Source: Candidatus Proelusimicrobium volucris
GTDB lineage: Bacteria; Elusimicrobiota; Elusimicrobia; Elusimicrobiales; Elusimicrobiaceae
Direction of reading: 5' to 3'
Length of the DNA: 64,000 nt
Assembly: GCA_944324665.1 (NCBI GenBank)
Contig: CALUXD010000001.1
Span: forward strand, 496,001 to 560,000
The notes under the pieces are model-generated. The model saw nothing but the letters and a program-made list of their open reading frames with translations, searched no databases and was not told the origin of the DNA. The position numbers were made by a program, and so were the translations under genes. Positions 21,914 through 33,341 of the stretch are shown in pieces. Positions within the stretch are counted from its first letter, which is position 1, and each line of letters opens with the position of its first letter.

Positions 21914-21943
21914 AAGCCGCCTATTGCCAATAGGCGGCTTTTT
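21914..21943 (+). terminator. Terminator of purBA
   Basis: A 12-bp stem (21914-21925 with 21929-21940), GCC loop, then a T-run. Confidence 0.92.
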
Positions 21944-22085: not shown

Positions 22086-23873
22086 ATGAAATCCTATGCC
22101 GTTGACAGCATTTACGCTTTTATTATAATAGTAGCTGTGTTTTTGGTTTTGCCTTTCTTCGTGCCGATGCAGGAGGAAGAGTTTGTCTCTGAGCCTGTCG
22201 GCGAATATACGATAGAGGAAGAAAAACCGGAGATTTTTACCCGAATAATAGACAGAGTCTCATCTTTTTATCATCTAAAGAAGAAAAAGAAAGCAGTGCT
22301 TTCTAAATCCTTTTCCGAAGATAAATCCGCGGATAAAAAAGGAGAGCTTTCTTCCCTGAATGCAAATTCTGCGGAAGGCGCGGCCCAAGCCGGGGCTTCA
22401 AACGAAAGAATGTCTGCCGATTCCGTGCGCACGCAGAGATCTCAGTCTGAAGGAACTGCCGGACGATATAACGCAAAGCAGCGTTCTTTGCCGGATATGG
22501 CCGAACTTGACGGAAAAGTATATCAGATAATGCCAGATCCCTATGGCAATAAATATGTGATAGCCAAAGGCGGTCCGATACCGCTTAAGGACTTTATAGC
22601 CAAGGGCGGCAGGATAGTAAAGCCGTCGTATAATTATGAAACGGGCAACAACTTATCAGTGAATATGTCTGGGGGGAGTATACGTTCCGTGGGGGAGGGA
22701 TCTCCCGTAAGATATGGTAGTGTTTCCGGCGGCAGGGCCGGTGGCGACATATCTGCATATAAAGGGCGAAGGGGCGGCAAAATAAGTGGGTTTAATCAAG
22801 GAAAAGTTACAGACGTGGGAGAAGAGTCCTCCAGCGGATCTCAGGGCGGCTCACGGGGCATAAGCTCGGGTTTTGACTTAAGCGGTTTTGATTTTGGTTC
22901 AGGGGAAAGCTTTGGCGAGTTACAGCAAAATTTAGTCGCCAAAAGCGGAGGCGGGGCCAAAAGCGCTAATACAGATGACAGAGATAACAGGCCTTCCAAG
23001 GTGTACAAACTTCAGAATACCAAGCCTTTCGTGAGCGAAAATGCCGTAGGCGTAGCGATACAAAAAGAAGACGAGGGTATAACAATTGACATGAGCGGCG
23101 GCGGAGAAACGGACGAATTCGGTTTCGCAGACACATCGGGTTTTGAATCCGATTTTGACTCGCAAACGCCGCAGGATGATGGGAATGTCCTTTTGTTGAA
23201 TATAGAAGCCGGATATGAAAACTCTTTGGGAATTATCCCGGAAAATTCCGAGACTCGCAAAGCGATGACGCGCGAGCTTTTGGGGGATTCCTCTTTTATC
23301 GGTAAATCTTCCCAGGGGAGAGTAAGCGACCCGTGGATATTGCCTAACAATATAGACAACGGCCCCGGTAAAGAATTTTTTGAAGCGAACAGAGATGTCT
23401 TATTGGGCAGCGACGCTGTCAGCTTTAAGGAATGGGAAGAGAACGATATCTATTACAACAAGGTCCGCGGCGATATAGAAAGCACGACAAACGGCGCCGT
23501 TACTCCTTTGGTTATGATAAACGGGCAAAAAGGGCCTTTCACCATGCAAGTTATGCCTGAAGACAGTTATTATTACAAAGTGACTTCCAATTTGCTTAAT
23601 AATAAAGTCCGAAAAGTTGACGAAGGCGGCGAAGTAGATTTGAACCGTATAGACAAAAACAGGGTGTTGGTGGTTGTGCCGGAAAGGCCTTTAGCGGATA
23701 ATTTGAGGAAAGACGGTTATAAAGTCGCCATATTTGACAAATATATAGTAACGCCGGGCAATTTAAAGAATTTTTACGATCAAACATCAAACGCCATTAA
23801 GGATATAGAAGAAGGCAAAAAAGCCGATCACGAGGCAAAGAAACAAGATATAGCGCGCTCCTTAAAAAAGTGA
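22086..23873 (+). CDS. Paralogue 1: single-span membrane protein, low-complexity middle, unknown
   Basis: 595 residues, not recognised. One hydrophobic helix at about 8-27 (ends FLVLPFFVP), no cleavage site, then an acidic stretch and a motif IFTRIIDRVSSFYHLKKKKK. Residues about 80-130 and 190-290 are Ser/Gly rich; a block SGFDFGSGESFGELQQNL falls near 275. The C-terminal part is globular, with a strand-helix-strand unit at about 525-555 (NRVLVVVPERPLADNLRKDG, then YKVAIFDK) and a charged Lys-rich tail. The helix, the FTR-K-FYG-KKK motif, the Gly block and the C-terminal unit recur in the two genes downstream. Topology suggests an inner-membrane anchor with the long part in the periplasm. Function unknown. 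Confidence 0.7.
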   Translation: MKSYAVDSIYAFIIIVAVFLVLPFFVPMQEEEFVSEPVGEYTIEEEKPEIFTRIIDRVSSFYHLKKKKKAVLSKSFSEDKSADKKGELSSLNANSAEGAAQAGASNERMSADSVRTQRSQSEGTAGRYNAKQRSLPDMAELDGKVYQIMPDPYGNKYVIAKGGPIPLKDFIAKGGRIVKPSYNYETGNNLSVNMSGGSIRSVGEGSPVRYGSVSGGRAGGDISAYKGRRGGKISGFNQGKVTDVGEESSSGSQGGSRGISSGFDLSGFDFGSGESFGELQQNLVAKSGGGAKSANTDDRDNRPSKVYKLQNTKPFVSENAVGVAIQKEDEGITIDMSGGGETDEFGFADTSGFESDFDSQTPQDDGNVLLLNIEAGYENSLGIIPENSETRKAMTRELLGDSSFIGKSSQGRVSDPWILPNNIDNGPGKEFFEANRDVLLGSDAVSFKEWEENDIYYNKVRGDIESTTNGAVTPLVMINGQKGPFTMQVMPEDSYYYKVTSNLLNNKVRKVDEGGEVDLNRIDKNRVLVVVPERPLADNLRKDGYKVAIFDKYIVTPGNLKNFYDQTSNAIKDIEEGKKADHEAKKQDIARSLKK

Positions 23874-23876
23874 TTT

Positions 23877-23914
23877 GGGCCTTAAGACCCAGGTATTTTT
23901 GGGCCTAAAAACCC
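23877..23914. repeat. Two imperfect copies of a GGGCC...ACCC unit
   Basis: GGGCCTTAAGACCC (23877-23890) recurs as GGGCCTAAAAACCC (23901-23914), 24 nt apart, right after the paralogue 1 stop. Each can fold only weakly. It may be a poor terminator, with a T-rich run after the second copy. Confidence 0.35.
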
Positions 23915-24002
23915 TTGTTTTATAGAAGGTTATTTAATAAATTTTAATAATAGAAGCAGTGTTTTTTATAGCTTTGACATTAAATTTACGGAGTAAGCGG
24001 AT

Positions 24003-24656
24003 ATGAAGAAAAAGTTTTTGTTTGTTTTGGCATTTTCGATATTGGCTCTTGGCGCTTTGCCGGCGCATGCCGATTTGCATATGTACTGCAAAATAAACGG
24101 CGTGGAATATGAATTGGGTGACGTAATTAAGAGGTTCGGCAATTACAGCAAAGCCGTTATAGGCTGCTGCGATTTGACGAAAGTATGCGGGCCCAATTAT
24201 ATATCCAATGTCGAGGGTGACGAATACTTGCATTCGCTTAGCTTGATAGCGGCAAAATATAACCACTTAGGTTCTTTAAAATATCTTATAGACGTCAAGG
24301 GTGTAGGCTATGAAAGCTGGCCGATGAAAAAAGGCAGTGACGGCCATTATAGAGATTATAAAGATTATACCCAGCTTATGTACGCGATAAAGAACGGCAA
24401 TGCGGATATGGTTGCTTATCTGTTAAAGAAGGGTGCAAACCCCCGTTTGTCCAATCAGTATGGCGAAGACGCTAAGGATATAGCCGAAGGGACGGATAAT
24501 TCAGAGGTAAAGGAACTTGTAAGAGAGGCTTGGAGTTCCTACAGATACAAACTTGATATTGAATATAAACGGGATATTTTAGACCTTAAGAACGAAAATT
24601 ACGATGATATTTTTGCCGGTTTTCTAAAGATGATAAATTTTGACGACAGCATTTAA
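24003..24656 (+). CDS. Exported ankyrin-repeat protein
   Basis: 217 residues. A classic signal peptide (MKKKFLFVLAFSILALGALPAHA) with cleavage after AHA. Two to three ankyrin-type repeats follow: HSLSLIAAKYNHLGSLKYLI, then YTQLMYAIKNGNADMVAYLL with KKGANPRLSNQYGEDAKDIA. Four Cys lie early in the mature part (MYCKI, IGCCDL, KVCG), suggesting disulfides in the periplasm. Ankyrin repeats bind other proteins. It is placed between paralogues 1 and 2, 26 nt ahead of the latter, so a partner role for those proteins is an attractive inference. TTGACA occurs upstream but no matching -10. Confidence 0.78.
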   Translation: MKKKFLFVLAFSILALGALPAHADLHMYCKINGVEYELGDVIKRFGNYSKAVIGCCDLTKVCGPNYISNVEGDEYLHSLSLIAAKYNHLGSLKYLIDVKGVGYESWPMKKGSDGHYRDYKDYTQLMYAIKNGNADMVAYLLKKGANPRLSNQYGEDAKDIAEGTDNSEVKELVREAWSSYRYKLDIEYKRDILDLKNENYDDIFAGFLKMINFDDSI

Positions 24657-24682
24657 TTAAATAACCGGAAGAGGAGGCGGCT

Positions 24683-26689
24683 ATGGCGCATAAAAAAACA
24701 GGGAATATAATTATATGGATTTTTGCCGCCGTGGCGATATTTTTGGCGGTTCCGTTTGTTTTTCAGGAAGGAGTGCCGGGTAAAAGCGGAAGCGGAGTTT
24801 CAATAGACGGGGAAGGGCTTTTACCGGTAGTCAGTTCCGAAAATCCTTTAACCAAATACGTAAAGAAGCTTGCGGAGTTTTACGGCTTTAAGAAGAAAGG
24901 TGTTCCCGCTGGGAAGTCTTTTGCCAAAAGCGACTCTTACTCCGAAGACGATTTGAGGTATATGAAAGATGCTTTCGGCGGCCTTTTCTCCAACTCTGAA
25001 GGCGGCACCGACGCCTCCGCGGGTGGGGATACCTCCGCGCTTTCTGCCGAGACGGTTGGTTCTATTCGGGCGGCTTATGCCAAAGGTGAAAGTGTCTCTT
25101 TGGAAAACGGCACCGTAACTACCGCCAAGGGCCTTGTTCTTAAACCTTCGAAAGACGGCTATTCGATAAACGGCAAGTTTTATAAAAACGGGGCCTATCC
25201 GTCTGCAAAAGATAAACGTGAGATAGAGAGAGCTTTAAGTAAATTCCACAAAGAGAAGGCTGCCCAAGAAGGGCTTAGGGCAGCTTATGTGCGTAATCCC
25301 GATGGCAGTTTGTCGGTTCAATATATGTCGCCGGAAAGTTTGGATATAAAGATGGGCAATAATTTGTACGCCTCAAACAAAAAACACGGCAGCGATTATT
25401 ACCGCGGCGCCAGGATAATTTCCAGAAAAGATTCCGCTCCCTCTTCCTCCGGCGGCAACAGCTCTTCCGGATCCGCCTCAAAGCGGAGCGGTTATTCGTC
25501 ATTTGACAATATAGACTCCATATACGATAACGTATCTGATAGGCTAAAAGAGCATTTTGGAGATAAAGAAGATCCCGCAGCCGAGGAAGAAAAGGCGCAA
25601 GAAAGTACCGACGGGCAAAGTCTTTCCCAAGAGCTGATAGCCAATTCCAACCGTGCGCCGGTAAGTTTGCTGATAAGCTCTCAGTTAAGGGAATCACCCA
25701 ACGAAATCCCCGGCACTGAATATTTAAATGCCCCTAGGGTTTCCCTTAGATTGGCTAGGACTAATGCCAAGACGAAATCTTTGGAAGATTTTTTAAGTAA
25801 ATACGGAGTTGAGGGCAAATTCCATTTTACCGAAATTCAAATGCCCTATATAGCGCGCGGTACTAGTGAAGAACAAATAAAAGAGATCATGTCTAAATGG
25901 TCCCAACAATTGGACTCCTTAAGATCTGAGGATGGCCTTCTTAGGGTGTTTTCTCCTTCAATGATACCTGATGAGGTTTTTATTAACAATACTCCCGATC
26001 CTACAATGTATATCGGATATCCTAGAGTGCCGTATATGGATATCGATTCTTCCGGCCAGCCTGCGCTTACCAGCTTTTCGGAAGTCTTTTTAAACAGAAC
26101 GGGCCTTTCCAATATGTTCTACGCGATGAGCGATCCCAACGGCGAAAAGTTGGATACCTCCGAATTGGAAGCGCGTTATTATGCCTTGGACGATATGCGT
26201 AACGAAAATAACAAGTATTTGCAAATGTTTGGCAAAAATGAGGGAATAAAAAAGAAAATGCCCAAAGTGGTATTCTATTTGGGGAAAATGGTGAAAAATG
26301 AGGGGAATGTCGCGGTAGCCTCGCCTGCCTCGTTCCTGTACGTATATGCTCCGAATATGGCGCCGGACTTTATATTGGGCGATGATAAACTTTCTTCGTT
26401 TAGAGAAATGCCGGCGGACGTCTTTTTAAATAACGTTAATGAAAGCGGTAGCAACAACATAGTAATAGTTAATGACGAAAAAATCAAAGATACTTTAAAT
26501 AAAGCCGGGGTAAAAAATGTGTCCGTTATAGAAACGGACAGACTCTCTTCCGGTACTCCGGAAGATGTTGAATATGTGATATCCGCTTTGAAAGACGTAG
26601 TCACGCAAAGAGTAATGGCCGATGAAGTGCTAAAGCAGGAGTTTATAAAGGCTATGAAAGAAGCCAGCGAAAAAGAAAAGGGAAAATAG
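24683..26689 (+). CDS. Paralogue 2: single-span membrane protein, low-complexity middle, unknown
   Basis: 668 residues. Membrane helix at about 9-26 (FAAVAIFLAVPFVFQ), then LTKYVKKLAEFYGFKKKG, equivalent to the motif in paralogue 1, and YSEDDLRYMKDAFGGLFSNSE, equivalent to YGDEELYYAMTALFSAGNSE in paralogue 3. Ser/Gly-rich stretch at about 250-275. The C-terminal half looks globular and longer than in its neighbours (SLLISSQLRESPNEIPGTEY onward). The shared C-terminal unit begins near residue 591 (NNIVIVNDEKIKDTLNKAGV, NVSVIETDRL) and ends in a Lys/Glu tail. GAGGAGG precedes the ATG. Function unknown; membership of the same family as 1 and 3 is my inference from these blocks. Confidence 0.68.
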   Translation: MAHKKTGNIIIWIFAAVAIFLAVPFVFQEGVPGKSGSGVSIDGEGLLPVVSSENPLTKYVKKLAEFYGFKKKGVPAGKSFAKSDSYSEDDLRYMKDAFGGLFSNSEGGTDASAGGDTSALSAETVGSIRAAYAKGESVSLENGTVTTAKGLVLKPSKDGYSINGKFYKNGAYPSAKDKREIERALSKFHKEKAAQEGLRAAYVRNPDGSLSVQYMSPESLDIKMGNNLYASNKKHGSDYYRGARIISRKDSAPSSSGGNSSSGSASKRSGYSSFDNIDSIYDNVSDRLKEHFGDKEDPAAEEEKAQESTDGQSLSQELIANSNRAPVSLLISSQLRESPNEIPGTEYLNAPRVSLRLARTNAKTKSLEDFLSKYGVEGKFHFTEIQMPYIARGTSEEQIKEIMSKWSQQLDSLRSEDGLLRVFSPSMIPDEVFINNTPDPTMYIGYPRVPYMDIDSSGQPALTSFSEVFLNRTGLSNMFYAMSDPNGEKLDTSELEARYYALDDMRNENNKYLQMFGKNEGIKKKMPKVVFYLGKMVKNEGNVAVASPASFLYVYAPNMAPDFILGDDKLSSFREMPADVFLNNVNESGSNNIVIVNDEKIKDTLNKAGVKNVSVIETDRLSSGTPEDVEYVISALKDVVTQRVMADEVLKQEFIKAMKEASEKEKGK

Positions 26690-26740
26690 TGATTATATTA
26701 AGCAAGGAGAGTTTAATATAATTATAAAGAGGGTAAATTT

Positions 26741-28783
26741 ATGTCAAAGGGTTTAATATTAAAGATTATTCTTTGCGGGTTTGTGGTATTTTTGCTTCTT
26801 CCTGCCGTCTTTGATGAGGAGCAAGCCAAGCCTGTAAAGAAACAGCCGTTTGAAGACGCCACCGAATTTAATCCCAGTTTATATGACGGGGAAGAAAGCC
26901 TTCCTATACTAGATATAGCAGAGCCTGAAGAGGCCAATGTCTTTACCAGATACGCAAAAAAATTTAAGAATATGTATGGCCGAGCATTATTTGGCCGAAA
27001 CGACGAAAAAACACCCTCTTACAAAACGGCGCAAACCGATGAATACGGCGACGAGGAATTATACTATGCCATGACCGCTTTGTTTAGCGCGGGAAATTCC
27101 GAAAAGGGTGGCGCCGAGCAAAGGGCATCTTATGACTCGGGAAACTCCAAAGGCGGAGCCAATATCAATGCCGTTGCATATGATAAAGAGTATTTCAGCG
27201 GGGTTCCCTCTACCGTAAAGCAAACGGTGCACGAAAATGCCCCGGTAAAAGGATTGTACGAAACTTCGTCGGTGGAATCTTATGAAACCCGCAGTAAGGC
27301 TCAGCAAGTATATAGCAATGTGATGAATAAAGTCGACAGAACCGTACCCAAAGCGGCTAAGGCGAACGCCCTCGGCGAAGTTTCTTCCGCGGGAACTGAA
27401 GATACTGAAAGTTATCAGGGCGGCAGTTACGGCGCTTTTGATCAAGCCGCAGCGGCGGATATCGGTTACGATCATCGTATGCCGGACTTAAATGACTCTA
27501 TGATGTTTGCCGCCGCTAGTACCAAGAAAAACAACAGTAAATATAGCGGGATAGCGAGCCGCAGCTCAAGCCGCAGCGGTGGGAATTACGGCAGTGGGAG
27601 TTATAGCGCGTATAGTAGAAACTCTGTCGGCAGCCTTGAAGATTTAGGCGGAGGCTTTGGCGATAGTTTTGAAGCTTTGCTATCCCGTACGCAAGGCAGC
27701 ATCTCTACGGCGGCCGATATAATGAAAGAGGAACGGCGCGAAAGAGAGGAAAACGAATCTAAAGGACAAGGGGGGAGAAACCAAAGCGGCAATGATAAGG
27801 AAAGTGTGCCATCGCAGAGCGGGAATTTAGAAGGATTGCCAAATGATAACGGCCAATCGGGAGGAAATGAGGGCTCAACCGTTGCCGGCGGGGACGAGGA
27901 CTCCGCAGGTGGTAATAAAGAAGAAATTACCCCTGATGGCGGTCAAACTCAAGAGGGCGGCAAGAAACCTGGGCAGGACAATCCTCCATTGGGGCAGGAT
28001 ACGGTTTTTGACCAGCAAAAATACGATTATGTATTGCACGACACCTGTGTAGACGGCCCCAATTCGGATAGGTCTGCAAATACGCAGTTGCCTTTTACCG
28101 AGGGAATAGCTTCCTTTAACTCAAGAAAGGGAATATTATCTCCGTCTTCAGCTTCTAATCCTGATAAGATAGAACCATTTTGTTCTACTCCTTTAGAGGG
28201 TGCTCAGCCCATAGAAGCGGCCATTGAAGGGAAAAATATAGTTGTGGACTTGGGCTTAACGAAAGGCAATGACGGTAATTTGTATAGGGTAACGCCTACT
28301 TATATGTCGCTTTCTGACAAAGGGTTAAGCCAAATAGGTATAGAAGATTATTATGAAGGATCTAGAAACTCAATAAGTTTGGGAGAATTGTTTAAAGGCA
28401 CAAGAATTTCAGAGTTTGCCGCCGCGGCAAACAATAAAAACAGCATTGTTATAACGGTATCACCGGCCGTAGCGAGGGCGTATTTAGGAAAGTCTGTCCT
28501 TATAGAAGAAGGAGATTTGGAGAGCAAAAGCGGATTGAGATCCCTTTCAGAGAAATTAAATAATCTTCCCGCGGAAAGGGAGCGCATCCTCGCTGTTACC
28601 AGTCAACAACAGGCGGCTATAATCCCTCAGCCTCAAGGCAGAAGCCAAGCTCAAGAACAAGCCCGTAAAGAGGCTGCGGCCAAAGCTGACATTCAAGAAA
28701 AGAAAGAAGAGATAAAAGAGAAAGGCTTTTTCGGAAGGATATTCGACAATTTGCGAGGCGGAAATAAGAAAAAGAGGAAGTAA
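26741..28783 (+). CDS. Paralogue 3: single-span membrane protein, low-complexity middle, unknown
   Basis: 680 residues. Membrane helix at about 5-23 (IILCGFVVFLLLPAVF), acidic region, then VFTRYAKKFKNMYGRALFGR and YGDEELYYAMTALFSAGNSE. The middle (about 260-440) is disordered: RSSSRSGGNYGSGSYSAYSR, then GGGFGDSFEALLSRTQGS (like the Gly block of paralogue 1) and a Gly/Asn/Gln/Glu-rich linker. A globular part with two Cys (DTCVDG, PFCSTP) comes before the shared C-terminal unit near 567 (NSIVITVSPAVARAYLGKSV). It ends with a coiled, charged tail KKEEIKEKGFFGRIFDNL and Lys/Arg. Transcribed with paralogue 2 (51-nt gap). Confidence 0.68.
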   Translation: MSKGLILKIILCGFVVFLLLPAVFDEEQAKPVKKQPFEDATEFNPSLYDGEESLPILDIAEPEEANVFTRYAKKFKNMYGRALFGRNDEKTPSYKTAQTDEYGDEELYYAMTALFSAGNSEKGGAEQRASYDSGNSKGGANINAVAYDKEYFSGVPSTVKQTVHENAPVKGLYETSSVESYETRSKAQQVYSNVMNKVDRTVPKAAKANALGEVSSAGTEDTESYQGGSYGAFDQAAAADIGYDHRMPDLNDSMMFAAASTKKNNSKYSGIASRSSSRSGGNYGSGSYSAYSRNSVGSLEDLGGGFGDSFEALLSRTQGSISTAADIMKEERREREENESKGQGGRNQSGNDKESVPSQSGNLEGLPNDNGQSGGNEGSTVAGGDEDSAGGNKEEITPDGGQTQEGGKKPGQDNPPLGQDTVFDQQKYDYVLHDTCVDGPNSDRSANTQLPFTEGIASFNSRKGILSPSSASNPDKIEPFCSTPLEGAQPIEAAIEGKNIVVDLGLTKGNDGNLYRVTPTYMSLSDKGLSQIGIEDYYEGSRNSISLGELFKGTRISEFAAAANNKNSIVITVSPAVARAYLGKSVLIEEGDLESKSGLRSLSEKLNNLPAERERILAVTSQQQAAIIPQPQGRSQAQEQARKEAAAKADIQEKKEEIKEKGFFGRIFDNLRGGNKKKRK

Positions 28784-31098: not shown

Positions 31099-31613
31099 AG
31101 AGGATTTTTCTCCCTGCGGATATTGCGGCTCTGAAAAGTTTGAAAGCCGGCGAAGAGGTTTTGTTAAACGGAACGATTTATTCTCTTAGGGATAAGGCTC
31201 ACGCTTTGCTTTTGGGCGTAGGGGATATTCCGGACTTTTTGAAAGGCAGCGTAATATATTATATGGGTCCTACGCCCGCGCGCCCTAATAAGGCTATTGG
31301 CAGCTGCGGGCCTACCACAAGCGCTCGTATGGATAAATATACGCCTACAATAGTCAAAAAAACAAGTATAATTGGTATTATAGGCAAAGGCGAACGCAGC
31401 GCCGCGGTAAACCGCGCGATGAAAGGCAAGGCGATATATTTTCTTGCCTATGCGGGGTTGGGCGCATTGTGCGCTCGAAGCGTTTTGAGAAGTGAAGCTG
31501 TATTGTATAAGGAATTGGGAGCGGAGGCTGTTTTTAGGTTGGAAGTAAAAGATTTTCCGCTGATAGTGTGTCAAGATCTTAAAGGCGATAATATATACGG
31601 AGGAATAAAATGA
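31095..31613 (+). CDS. fumB: Fumarate hydratase class I, beta subunit
   Basis: 172 residues from ATG 31095, which overlaps the alpha stop as ATGA; longer readings start inside alpha. The C-terminal fumarase domain is visible: LKAGEEVLLNGTIYSLRDKAH, YYMGPTPARPNKAIGSCGPTTSARMD and GKGERSAAVNRAMKGKAIYF, and the ending DFPLIVCQDLKGDNIY. GPTT-S-RMD is the substrate-binding core. It is co-translated with alpha and overlaps the lipoprotein gene that begins the envelope part of this operon. Confidence 0.93.
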   Translation: MKRIFLPADIAALKSLKAGEEVLLNGTIYSLRDKAHALLLGVGDIPDFLKGSVIYYMGPTPARPNKAIGSCGPTTSARMDKYTPTIVKKTSIIGIIGKGERSAAVNRAMKGKAIYFLAYAGLGALCARSVLRSEAVLYKELGAEAVFRLEVKDFPLIVCQDLKGDNIYGGIK

Positions 31614-32891: not shown

Positions 32892-33341
32892 ATGGAAAGG
32901 ATAAAGAAACCGTATAAACGCAGTATAATTTTCATCAAAAAGCACATGCAGTTGAAGTTTGTGTTTTTGTCTTTGCTTCTTGCTCTTTTGTGCGTAGTTA
33001 TGTGCACTTATGAATTTGTAAGTATGATACAGGCCTTTTTTAAGGCTCATCCCGTATTGTTGCTGGAGCTTATGGAACAAAGTTCCGTACTTATACCGAT
33101 ATCCTTAATGAAACTTGCAATATTTTTTGCGGTGATAGCGATACTTGCGGCTATTTTATCCAATAGGATAGCGGGGCCGATATACAGGTTTGAAAGCGTA
33201 TGCAAAGAAGTGGCCAAAGGCAACTATAAGGTGCGGGTGAAACTGCGCGACGGCGACGGCCTTAGAAGTTTGGAAAAAGAATTTAACGCTATGCTCGACA
33301 GCTTGGAACGGAAAGAAGGGGAATCTAAAAATGAGAAATAA
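32892..33341 (+). CDS. Two-helix HAMP-domain membrane protein
   Basis: 149 residues. Two transmembrane helices at about 24-45 (FVFLSLLLALLCVVMCTYEFV) and 70-92 (LMKLAIFFAVIAILAAILSN), with only about 25 residues outside, followed by a HAMP domain (AGPIYRFESVCKEVAKGNYKVRVKLRDGDGLRSLEKEFNAML). HAMP domains pass signals from membrane helices to an output module, but none is attached here; the protein ends 20 residues later. It may act as a stand-alone adaptor or sense membrane state. It overlaps the TolC-like gene by 11 nt. Confidence 0.82.
   Translation: MERIKKPYKRSIIFIKKHMQLKFVFLSLLLALLCVVMCTYEFVSMIQAFFKAHPVLLLELMEQSSVLIPISLMKLAIFFAVIAILAAILSNRIAGPIYRFESVCKEVAKGNYKVRVKLRDGDGLRSLEKEFNAMLDSLERKEGESKNEK

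What the first reader, a model, noticed from the sequence alone, without database searches (positions are those of the whole stretch)
22086..28783. Three tandem paralogous membrane proteins of unknown function
Three consecutive long genes (595, 668, 680 residues) share an N-terminal helix ending in LPFF/VPFV/LPAV, a (F/L)T(R/K)Y-x-KK-x-x-x-(F/M)YG-KK motif, a (E/D)(E/D)LYYAMxALFSxxNSE-type block in two of them, a Gly/Ser-rich disordered middle, and a C-terminal strand-helix-strand unit near residues 525, 591 and 567. Sequence drift between copies is strong, so they are old duplicates kept side by side. I recognise no domain. This is the best candidate for an undescribed system.
Basis: partly seen in the sequence, partly recalled or inferred. 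Interest (0 to 1): 0.7.

Follow-up and report, generated by a model that had tools for sequence, protein, structure and literature searches.

The report
Tethered envelope protein family in Elusimicrobiaceae
Three related genes in a gut bacterium of the family Elusimicrobiaceae encode proteins that are anchored in the inner membrane and carry a folded domain on a long flexible leash; they belong to an apparently undescribed protein family found only in that bacterial family, often next to a protein-cutting enzyme, and their job is still unknown.

Summary
Genes A (22086-23873), C (24683-26689) and D (26741-28783) are real, divergent paralogues. Their N-termini are clearly homologous (hhalign probability 97-99%). 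Their C-terminal domains are probably homologous (A-C 72%, C-D 32%, unrelated controls at most 2.2%). They are not strictly consecutive: a secreted ankyrin-repeat gene, B (24003-24656), lies between A and C. Each has one N-terminal anchor, an amphipathic helix, a disordered middle and an apparently exported C-terminal α/β domain. Both ends are under purifying selection. No Pfam, NCBIfam, PHROGs or PDB-sequence match exists. An N-terminal profile finds the family in three genera of Elusimicrobiaceae (73 of 149 genomes of the order) and in none of the other 16 genera. In the other two genera the gene directly follows a PDZ-less HtrA-type protease gene in 36 of 36 loci inspected. In this genus the protease is unlinked, and A is followed by a secreted, mostly ankyrin-type gene in 20 of 23 loci. 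The model of C resembles siderophore/heme-binding proteins (Foldseek 2e-4), but profile comparison gives no support. I favour a membrane tether or partner for HtrA-type envelope proteolysis or assembly. The anatomy is well supported; the function is inferred and weakly supported.

The parts
22086..23873 (+). Gene A, 595 aa, single-pass anchored protein with exported C-terminal domain
   Evidence: ORF; homologues in 10 of 60 relatives by single sequence; N-terminal homology to C and D
24003..24656 (+). Gene B, 217 aa, signal peptide and ankyrin repeats; conserved partner gene of A
   Evidence: Pfam Ank_5 6.7e-10; same position after A in 20 of 23 loci, 16 with ankyrin evidence
24683..26689 (+). 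Gene C, 668 aa, same architecture
   Evidence: ORF; relatives in 15 of 36 genomes by single sequence; model
26741..28783 (+). Gene D, 680 aa, same architecture; two invariant Cys in the C-terminal half
   Evidence: ORF; alignment
22110..22166 (+). A: N-terminal membrane anchor (residues 9-27)
   Evidence: hydropathy maximum 2.8, no other segment; helix 4-25 in model
24704..24760 (+). C: N-terminal membrane anchor (residues 8-26)
   Evidence: hydropathy 2.9; helix 7-26 in model
26750..26809 (+). D: N-terminal membrane anchor (residues 4-23)
   Evidence: hydropathy 2.8
22233..22280 (+). A: conserved amphipathic/basic helix near the anchor
   Evidence: helix 50-61 in model; family-wide conservation
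24842..24892 (+). C: conserved amphipathic/basic helix (NPLTKYVKKLAEFYGFK)
   Evidence: helix 55-66 in model; alignment A6
26939..26986 (+). D: conserved amphipathic/basic helix (FTRYAKKFKNMYGR)
   Evidence: alignment A6
22497..22619 (+). A: small beta domain (residues 138-178)
   Evidence: pLDDT 55-76, strands 138-166
25091..25342 (+). C: small beta-helix-beta domain with invariant GY...YxNGxYP (residues 137-220)
   Evidence: pLDDT 59-82 over residues 141-220; densest run of invariant columns in A2
22632..23180 (+). A: disordered Gly/Ser-rich leash
   Evidence: mostly pLDDT 23-47; 53-59% identity versus 86-88% in the C-terminal domain
25343..25717 (+). C: disordered leash
   Evidence: pLDDT 20-37
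27341..28015 (+). D: disordered leash
   Evidence: 31-32% G+S per 100 aa over 201-400; among the fastest evolving segments
23181..23870 (+). A: C-terminal alpha/beta domain; strand-helix-strand at 23667-23732
   Evidence: low-confidence model; omega 0.03-0.10; a separate gene with its own signal peptide in L040 and L044
25718..26686 (+). C: C-terminal alpha/beta domain; long helix 493-517; strand-helix-strand at 26456-26527
   Evidence: pLDDT mostly 65-85 over residues 451-660; Foldseek to class III SBPs
28016..28660 (+). D: C-terminal domain; strand-helix-strand at about 28436-28501
   Evidence: alignment; hhalign to the C-terminal domain of C 32%, E 5e-4
21914..21940 (+). Terminator-like hairpin after purA, suggesting that A starts a new transcription unit
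   Evidence: 12-bp stem followed by a T-rich tail; prediction only

Best explanation
A, C and D are paralogues of an Elusimicrobiaceae-specific family of inner-membrane-tethered envelope proteins. The N-terminal helix stays in the inner membrane with the bulk of the protein outside the cytoplasm (inferred). A basic amphipathic helix sits next to the membrane, a disordered leash of about 120-230 residues follows, and the leash carries a conserved alpha/beta domain into the periplasm. The arrangement in the other two genera is one such protein encoded directly after a secreted, PDZ-less HtrA-type serine protease and ahead of an envelope gene set (lipoprotein, probable outer-membrane barrel, HAMP protein, TolC-like channel). 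I infer that the tethered domain presents envelope clients to, or is itself processed by, that protease system, that is, envelope protein assembly or quality control. In this genus the family expanded: A pairs with a secreted ankyrin-repeat protein B, while C and D keep the position upstream of the malic enzyme gene. Shown by computation: paralogy, anatomy, synteny, purifying selection, lineage restriction. Inferred: periplasmic location and partnership with the protease. Not shown: any activity.
For: N-terminal homology is strong across A, C, D and both other genera: 94-99% for most profile pairs, 65-90% for three pairs with the genus-g2 set. One hydrophobic segment per protein. In L040 and L044 the C-terminal domain of A is encoded separately behind its own signal peptide, so it is exported there. 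B has a signal peptide and D has two invariant Cys. HtrA-type protease directly upstream in 36 of 36 loci of the other two genera, lipoprotein directly downstream in 33 of 36. The protease keeps His, Asp and Ser and has no PDZ domain; an unlinked relative, 51% identical, is in the window's genome. The protease-tether adjacency survives different outer neighbours in genus g2 (L122, L123) and genus g6. A is followed by a secreted gene, mostly ankyrin-type, in 20 of 23 loci in several neighbourhoods. N- and C-terminal domains have omega mostly 0.02-0.18, linkers up to 0.98.
Against: In this genus the protease gene is unlinked, so the pairing is not universal. Synteny among related species is partly inherited, so 36 of 36 overstates the number of independent observations. 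There are no interaction, localisation or expression data. The AlphaFold models are partial: mean pLDDT 52 for C and 42 for A. A-D C-terminal similarity is weak on its own (1.6%).
Confidence: 0.35

Rival explanations
1. The C-terminal domain is a substrate-binding-protein-like (class III, FhuD/BtuF/TroA fold) ligand-capture domain held on a membrane leash; A, C and D would capture different small ligands for import.
For: Foldseek of the C model: the top ten PDB hits are all siderophore/heme-type SBPs, best E 2e-4, probability 1.00. Zn/Mn and hydroxamate SBPs also appear, non-significantly, among hits to the poor A model.
Against: Profile comparison with PF01497 homologues gives under 1% probability for every member. 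TM-scores are low (0.32-0.39 normalised to the target). No PDB sequence match. No ABC transporter genes were seen beside C and D.
Confidence: 0.2
2. Structural envelope scaffold: the proteins bridge inner membrane and cell wall or outer membrane, and the C-terminal domain is an attachment module without client or ligand turnover.
For: Single anchor, amphipathic helices, long leash, no conserved catalytic motif, envelope gene neighbours.
Against: A structural role does not by itself explain the constant protease neighbour in the other genera or the ankyrin partner of A.
Confidence: 0.25
3. TonB- or TolA-like energy-coupling leash that reaches across the periplasm to outer-membrane partners.
For: Same general layout: short N-terminal cytoplasmic part, one membrane helix, long linker, C-terminal alpha/beta domain.
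Against: No TonB_C match in A, C or D. The genome has its own TonB_C gene about 1.1 kb downstream of its only MotA_ExbB match, far from this locus.
Confidence: 0.07
4. A-B is a toxin-immunity pair, with the secreted ankyrin protein B as immunity, and C and D are related effectors.
For: B follows A in 20 of 23 loci and is sometimes duplicated; ankyrin-type immunity proteins are known (general knowledge).
Against: C-terminal domains are under strong purifying selection (omega 0.03-0.10 in A). C and D have no immunity-like gene next to them. The genes are inherited in syntenic positions among housekeeping genes. No toxin family matches.
Confidence: 0.05

Closest known systems
HtrA-type periplasmic proteases with bitopic membrane partners or substrates (DegS-RseA as the textbook case, from general knowledge)
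   Same: A secreted HtrA-type protease encoded next to a bitopic inner-membrane protein with an exported C-terminal part
   Different: The cytoplasmic part here is only a few residues, so it cannot be an RseA-type anti-sigma factor; the protease lacks a PDZ domain; the genes are unlinked in the window's genus
Class III substrate-binding proteins (PiaA, BhuT, HtsA, Rv0265c; PF01497)
   Same: Predicted fold of the C-terminal domain of C
   Different: No profile similarity, low TM-scores, tethered by a helix and a long leash rather than free or lipid-anchored, no adjacent importer
TonB/TolA
   Same: Layout: anchor, long linker, C-terminal domain
   Different: No family match; the genome has a separate TonB_C protein
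Periplasmic ankyrin proteins encoded beside a partner (Pseudomonas AnkB-catalase pair, from general knowledge)
   Same: B is a secreted ankyrin-repeat protein encoded directly after its presumed partner
   Different: A is not a catalase and has no known family

Membership tests
Class III substrate-binding protein (PF01497) | Sequence or profile match to Peripla_BP_2 | tested here: not met
   No Pfam hit for A, C or D; hhalign to relatives' PF01497 proteins under 1%; no PF01497 match in the window's genome
Class III substrate-binding protein (PF01497) | Two-lobe fold joined by a long backbone helix | tested here: inconclusive
   C model: top ten Foldseek hits are of this class, E 2e-4 to 0.04, but TM-scores 0.32-0.39 and partial coverage
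Class III substrate-binding protein (PF01497) | Cognate ABC importer | tested here: not met
   None among the neighbouring genes inspected; an unlinked importer was not searched for
TonB/TolA | TonB_C domain | tested here: not met
   Pfam scan without hit; the genome's TonB_C match is elsewhere
TonB/TolA | N-in membrane anchor, long periplasmic linker, C-terminal domain | tested here: met
   Hydropathy and models; orientation inferred
HtrA protease partner or substrate | Conserved gene adjacency to an HtrA-type protease | tested here: met
   36 of 36 loci in two genera; not in the window's genus, where the protease is unlinked
HtrA protease partner or substrate | Physical interaction with or cleavage by the protease | not testable with these tools
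   Needs an experiment
Toxin-immunity system | Immunity gene next to every toxin gene, and variable toxin domain | tested here: not met
   C and D have no such neighbour; C-terminal domain of A omega 0.03-0.10

The most novel reading that the evidence does not exclude
A new kind of membrane-tethered protease partner: a leash protein, unique to Elusimicrobiaceae, that delivers envelope clients to a PDZ-less HtrA-type protease (taking over the role of the PDZ domain) and that diversified in this genus into A, C and D, A with a periplasmic ankyrin co-factor.
Probability: 0.15. Interest if true: 0.65.

Novelty: new variant of a known kind. Interest (0 to 1): 0.42.

Why it matters
It defines a conserved protein family with no match in Pfam, NCBIfam, PHROGs or PDB sequences, present in most genomes of two genera of a poorly studied gut phylum and in a 1,643,562-bp single-contig genome that I take to be the cultured Elusimicrobium minutum. 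The constant neighbour in two genera, a PDZ-less HtrA-type protease, gives a direct experimental handle. If the link is real it would show another way to recruit clients to an HtrA-type protease.

Tried and rejected
Family searches of single proteins and alignment members in Pfam, of single proteins in NCBIfam and PHROGs, and profile searches of PDB sequences: nothing for A, C or D. Viral contigs: no relative of A. Model of A: too low in confidence, its fold hits are not significant. Membership in the class III substrate-binding proteins: not supported by profiles. TonB/TolA replacement: the genome has its own TonB_C gene. Toxin-immunity: C-termini are conserved and C and D lack immunity-like neighbours. 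Literature: the searches run found no held paper that describes these genes. Some reversed-profile controls failed to run, so only the unrelated-family controls are used. A perfect TTGACA-16-TATAAT lies inside the start of A (22102-22129); as it is within coding sequence I treat it as a lead only.
Full report
What is there. The three ORFs exist at the stated coordinates and lengths. I call them A (22086-23873), C (24683-26689) and D (26741-28783). Between A and C lies B (24003-24656), a 217-residue protein with a signal peptide and ankyrin repeats (Ank_5 6.7e-10), so the three are not consecutive. A terminator-like hairpin follows purA (21914-21940), and the gaps B-C, C-D and D-malic enzyme are short, so A-B-C-D may be one transcription unit; this is inference.

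Paralogy. blastp relates A to C (2e-5) and C to D (1e-5) over about 120-134 residues at the N-terminus. Profile-profile comparison gives 97-99% probability among A, C and D for the N-terminal module. The C-terminal domains are not alignable by blastp, but profiles give A-C 72% (E 3e-5, 135 columns) and C-D 32% (E 5e-4); A-D alone gives only 1.6%. Sixty comparisons with ten unrelated neighbouring families gave at most 2.2%. Some reversed-sequence controls failed and I do not use them. The strand-helix-strand pattern is seen in the C model (592-615) and, at low confidence, in the A model (528-549); D shows it in the alignment.

Anatomy. Each protein has one hydrophobic segment, at the N-terminus. 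Its outer flank is acidic in A and mixed in C and D; N-in/C-out is therefore an inference. Next come a conserved basic amphipathic helix, in A and C a small beta domain, a disordered Gly/Ser-rich stretch, and the C-terminal domain. In L040 and L044 the N-terminal module and the C-terminal domain of A are separate genes, the second with its own signal peptide. This is the best evidence that the domain is exported. Pairwise comparison with two close species shows purifying selection on both ends (N-terminal segments omega 0.02-0.18; A 366-595, C 491-668 and D 561-620 at most 0.10, some with saturated dS) and relaxed linkers (A 71-140 up to 0.98). The whole proteins are less conserved than purA or the malic enzyme.

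Distribution. Single-sequence searches find relatives only within the genus. A profile of the N-terminal module (A6) finds the family in 73 of 149 genomes of the order: 18 of 18 of the window's genus, 3 of 3 of genus g2, 52 of 66 of genus g6, and none of the other 16 genera (one search gives 74 of 90 in the family at a looser threshold). Named relatives fetched from the genome collection are Elusimicrobia or Elusimicrobiaceae MAGs or are unnamed to that level. g6 genomes usually carry one copy; G018 has three in tandem, which look like an expansion of their own (not tested with a tree).

Neighbourhood. In 36 of 36 inspected loci of g6 and g2 the gene directly upstream encodes a secreted trypsin-like protease of the HtrA type without PDZ (Trypsin_2 8.7e-27 and 5.5e-26; NCBIfam Do/HtrA matches over the protease domain only; tally). 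His, Asp and Ser positions are conserved. In 33 of 36 the gene directly downstream is the lipoprotein that in the window lies at 31610. The same envelope genes follow in all three genera: lipoprotein, 232-aa probable outer-membrane protein, HAMP protein, TolC-like protein, patatin, TPR protein. In the window's genome a protease 51% identical to the G018 one is unlinked, at C1:119 kb, separated by one small ORF from an ECF-type sigma factor that is followed by a likely anti-sigma gene. A C- or D-type gene lies directly upstream of the malic enzyme gene wherever the contigs of this genus allow a check.

The A-B pair. A is followed by a secreted gene in 20 of 23 determinable loci, in several neighbourhoods: after purA, after an amylomaltase-like gene, near a bL25-like gene, and next to an aspS-like gene. 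Sixteen of these have ankyrin evidence; four (G001, G003, G010, G014) have a 302-313-aa secreted protein with at most marginal ankyrin signal. The three exceptions are all in one genome, G015.

What it might be. No family in Pfam, NCBIfam, PHROGs or PDB sequences matches A, C or D. The model of C, built from 12 sequences, has a C-terminal domain at pLDDT mostly 65-85, and its ten best Foldseek hits are all class III substrate-binding proteins for siderophores or heme (E 2e-4 to 0.04). The TM-scores are low, and direct profile comparison with PF01497 proteins gives under 1%, so I treat this as a fold-level hint and not as membership. The A model is too poor to use.

Explanation. I commit to an inner-membrane-tethered envelope protein whose exported domain works with the HtrA-type protease and the downstream envelope genes in protein assembly or quality control, with B as a periplasmic partner of A. 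Paralogy, anatomy, distribution and synteny are shown by computation; location and function are inferred. The toxin-immunity and TonB-like readings are disfavoured by data; the ligand-binding and scaffold readings remain open.

Verdict. A real, old, lineage-restricted protein family with conserved neighbours. It is of interest as an uncharacterised family with a testable protease link, but no mechanism is demonstrated.

Noticed in passing
L199:6895-9132 (G000:C1, about 119-121 kb): The unlinked PDZ-less HtrA-type protease of this genome lies one small ORF upstream of an ECF-type sigma factor gene that is followed by a likely anti-sigma gene.
   Followed up: partly
L122:5329-11345: The genome taken to be E. 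minutum has three tandem paralogues of the same family behind its protease gene, apparently an independent expansion.
   Followed up: partly
L040:3095-5212 and L044:4631-6834: Gene A is split into an anchor gene and a separate C-terminal-domain gene with its own signal peptide.
   Followed up: yes
L030:9271-12579 (G000:C3, about 55-58.6 kb): A second A-type gene elsewhere in the genome is followed by two closely similar secreted ankyrin genes.
   Followed up: yes
window 32892-33341: A 149-aa membrane protein with a HAMP domain and no kinase or other output domain, conserved next to the TolC-like gene in all three genera.
   Followed up: no
window 22102-22129: A perfect sigma-70-like promoter match (TTGACA-16-TATAAT) inside the first codons of gene A; may be chance.
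   Followed up: no
L052, L054, L055, L056, L058, L061: In several species of the genus the C-type protein keeps the N-terminal about 290-340 residues but has a C-terminal part not detectably related to that of C by profile comparison.
   Followed up: partly
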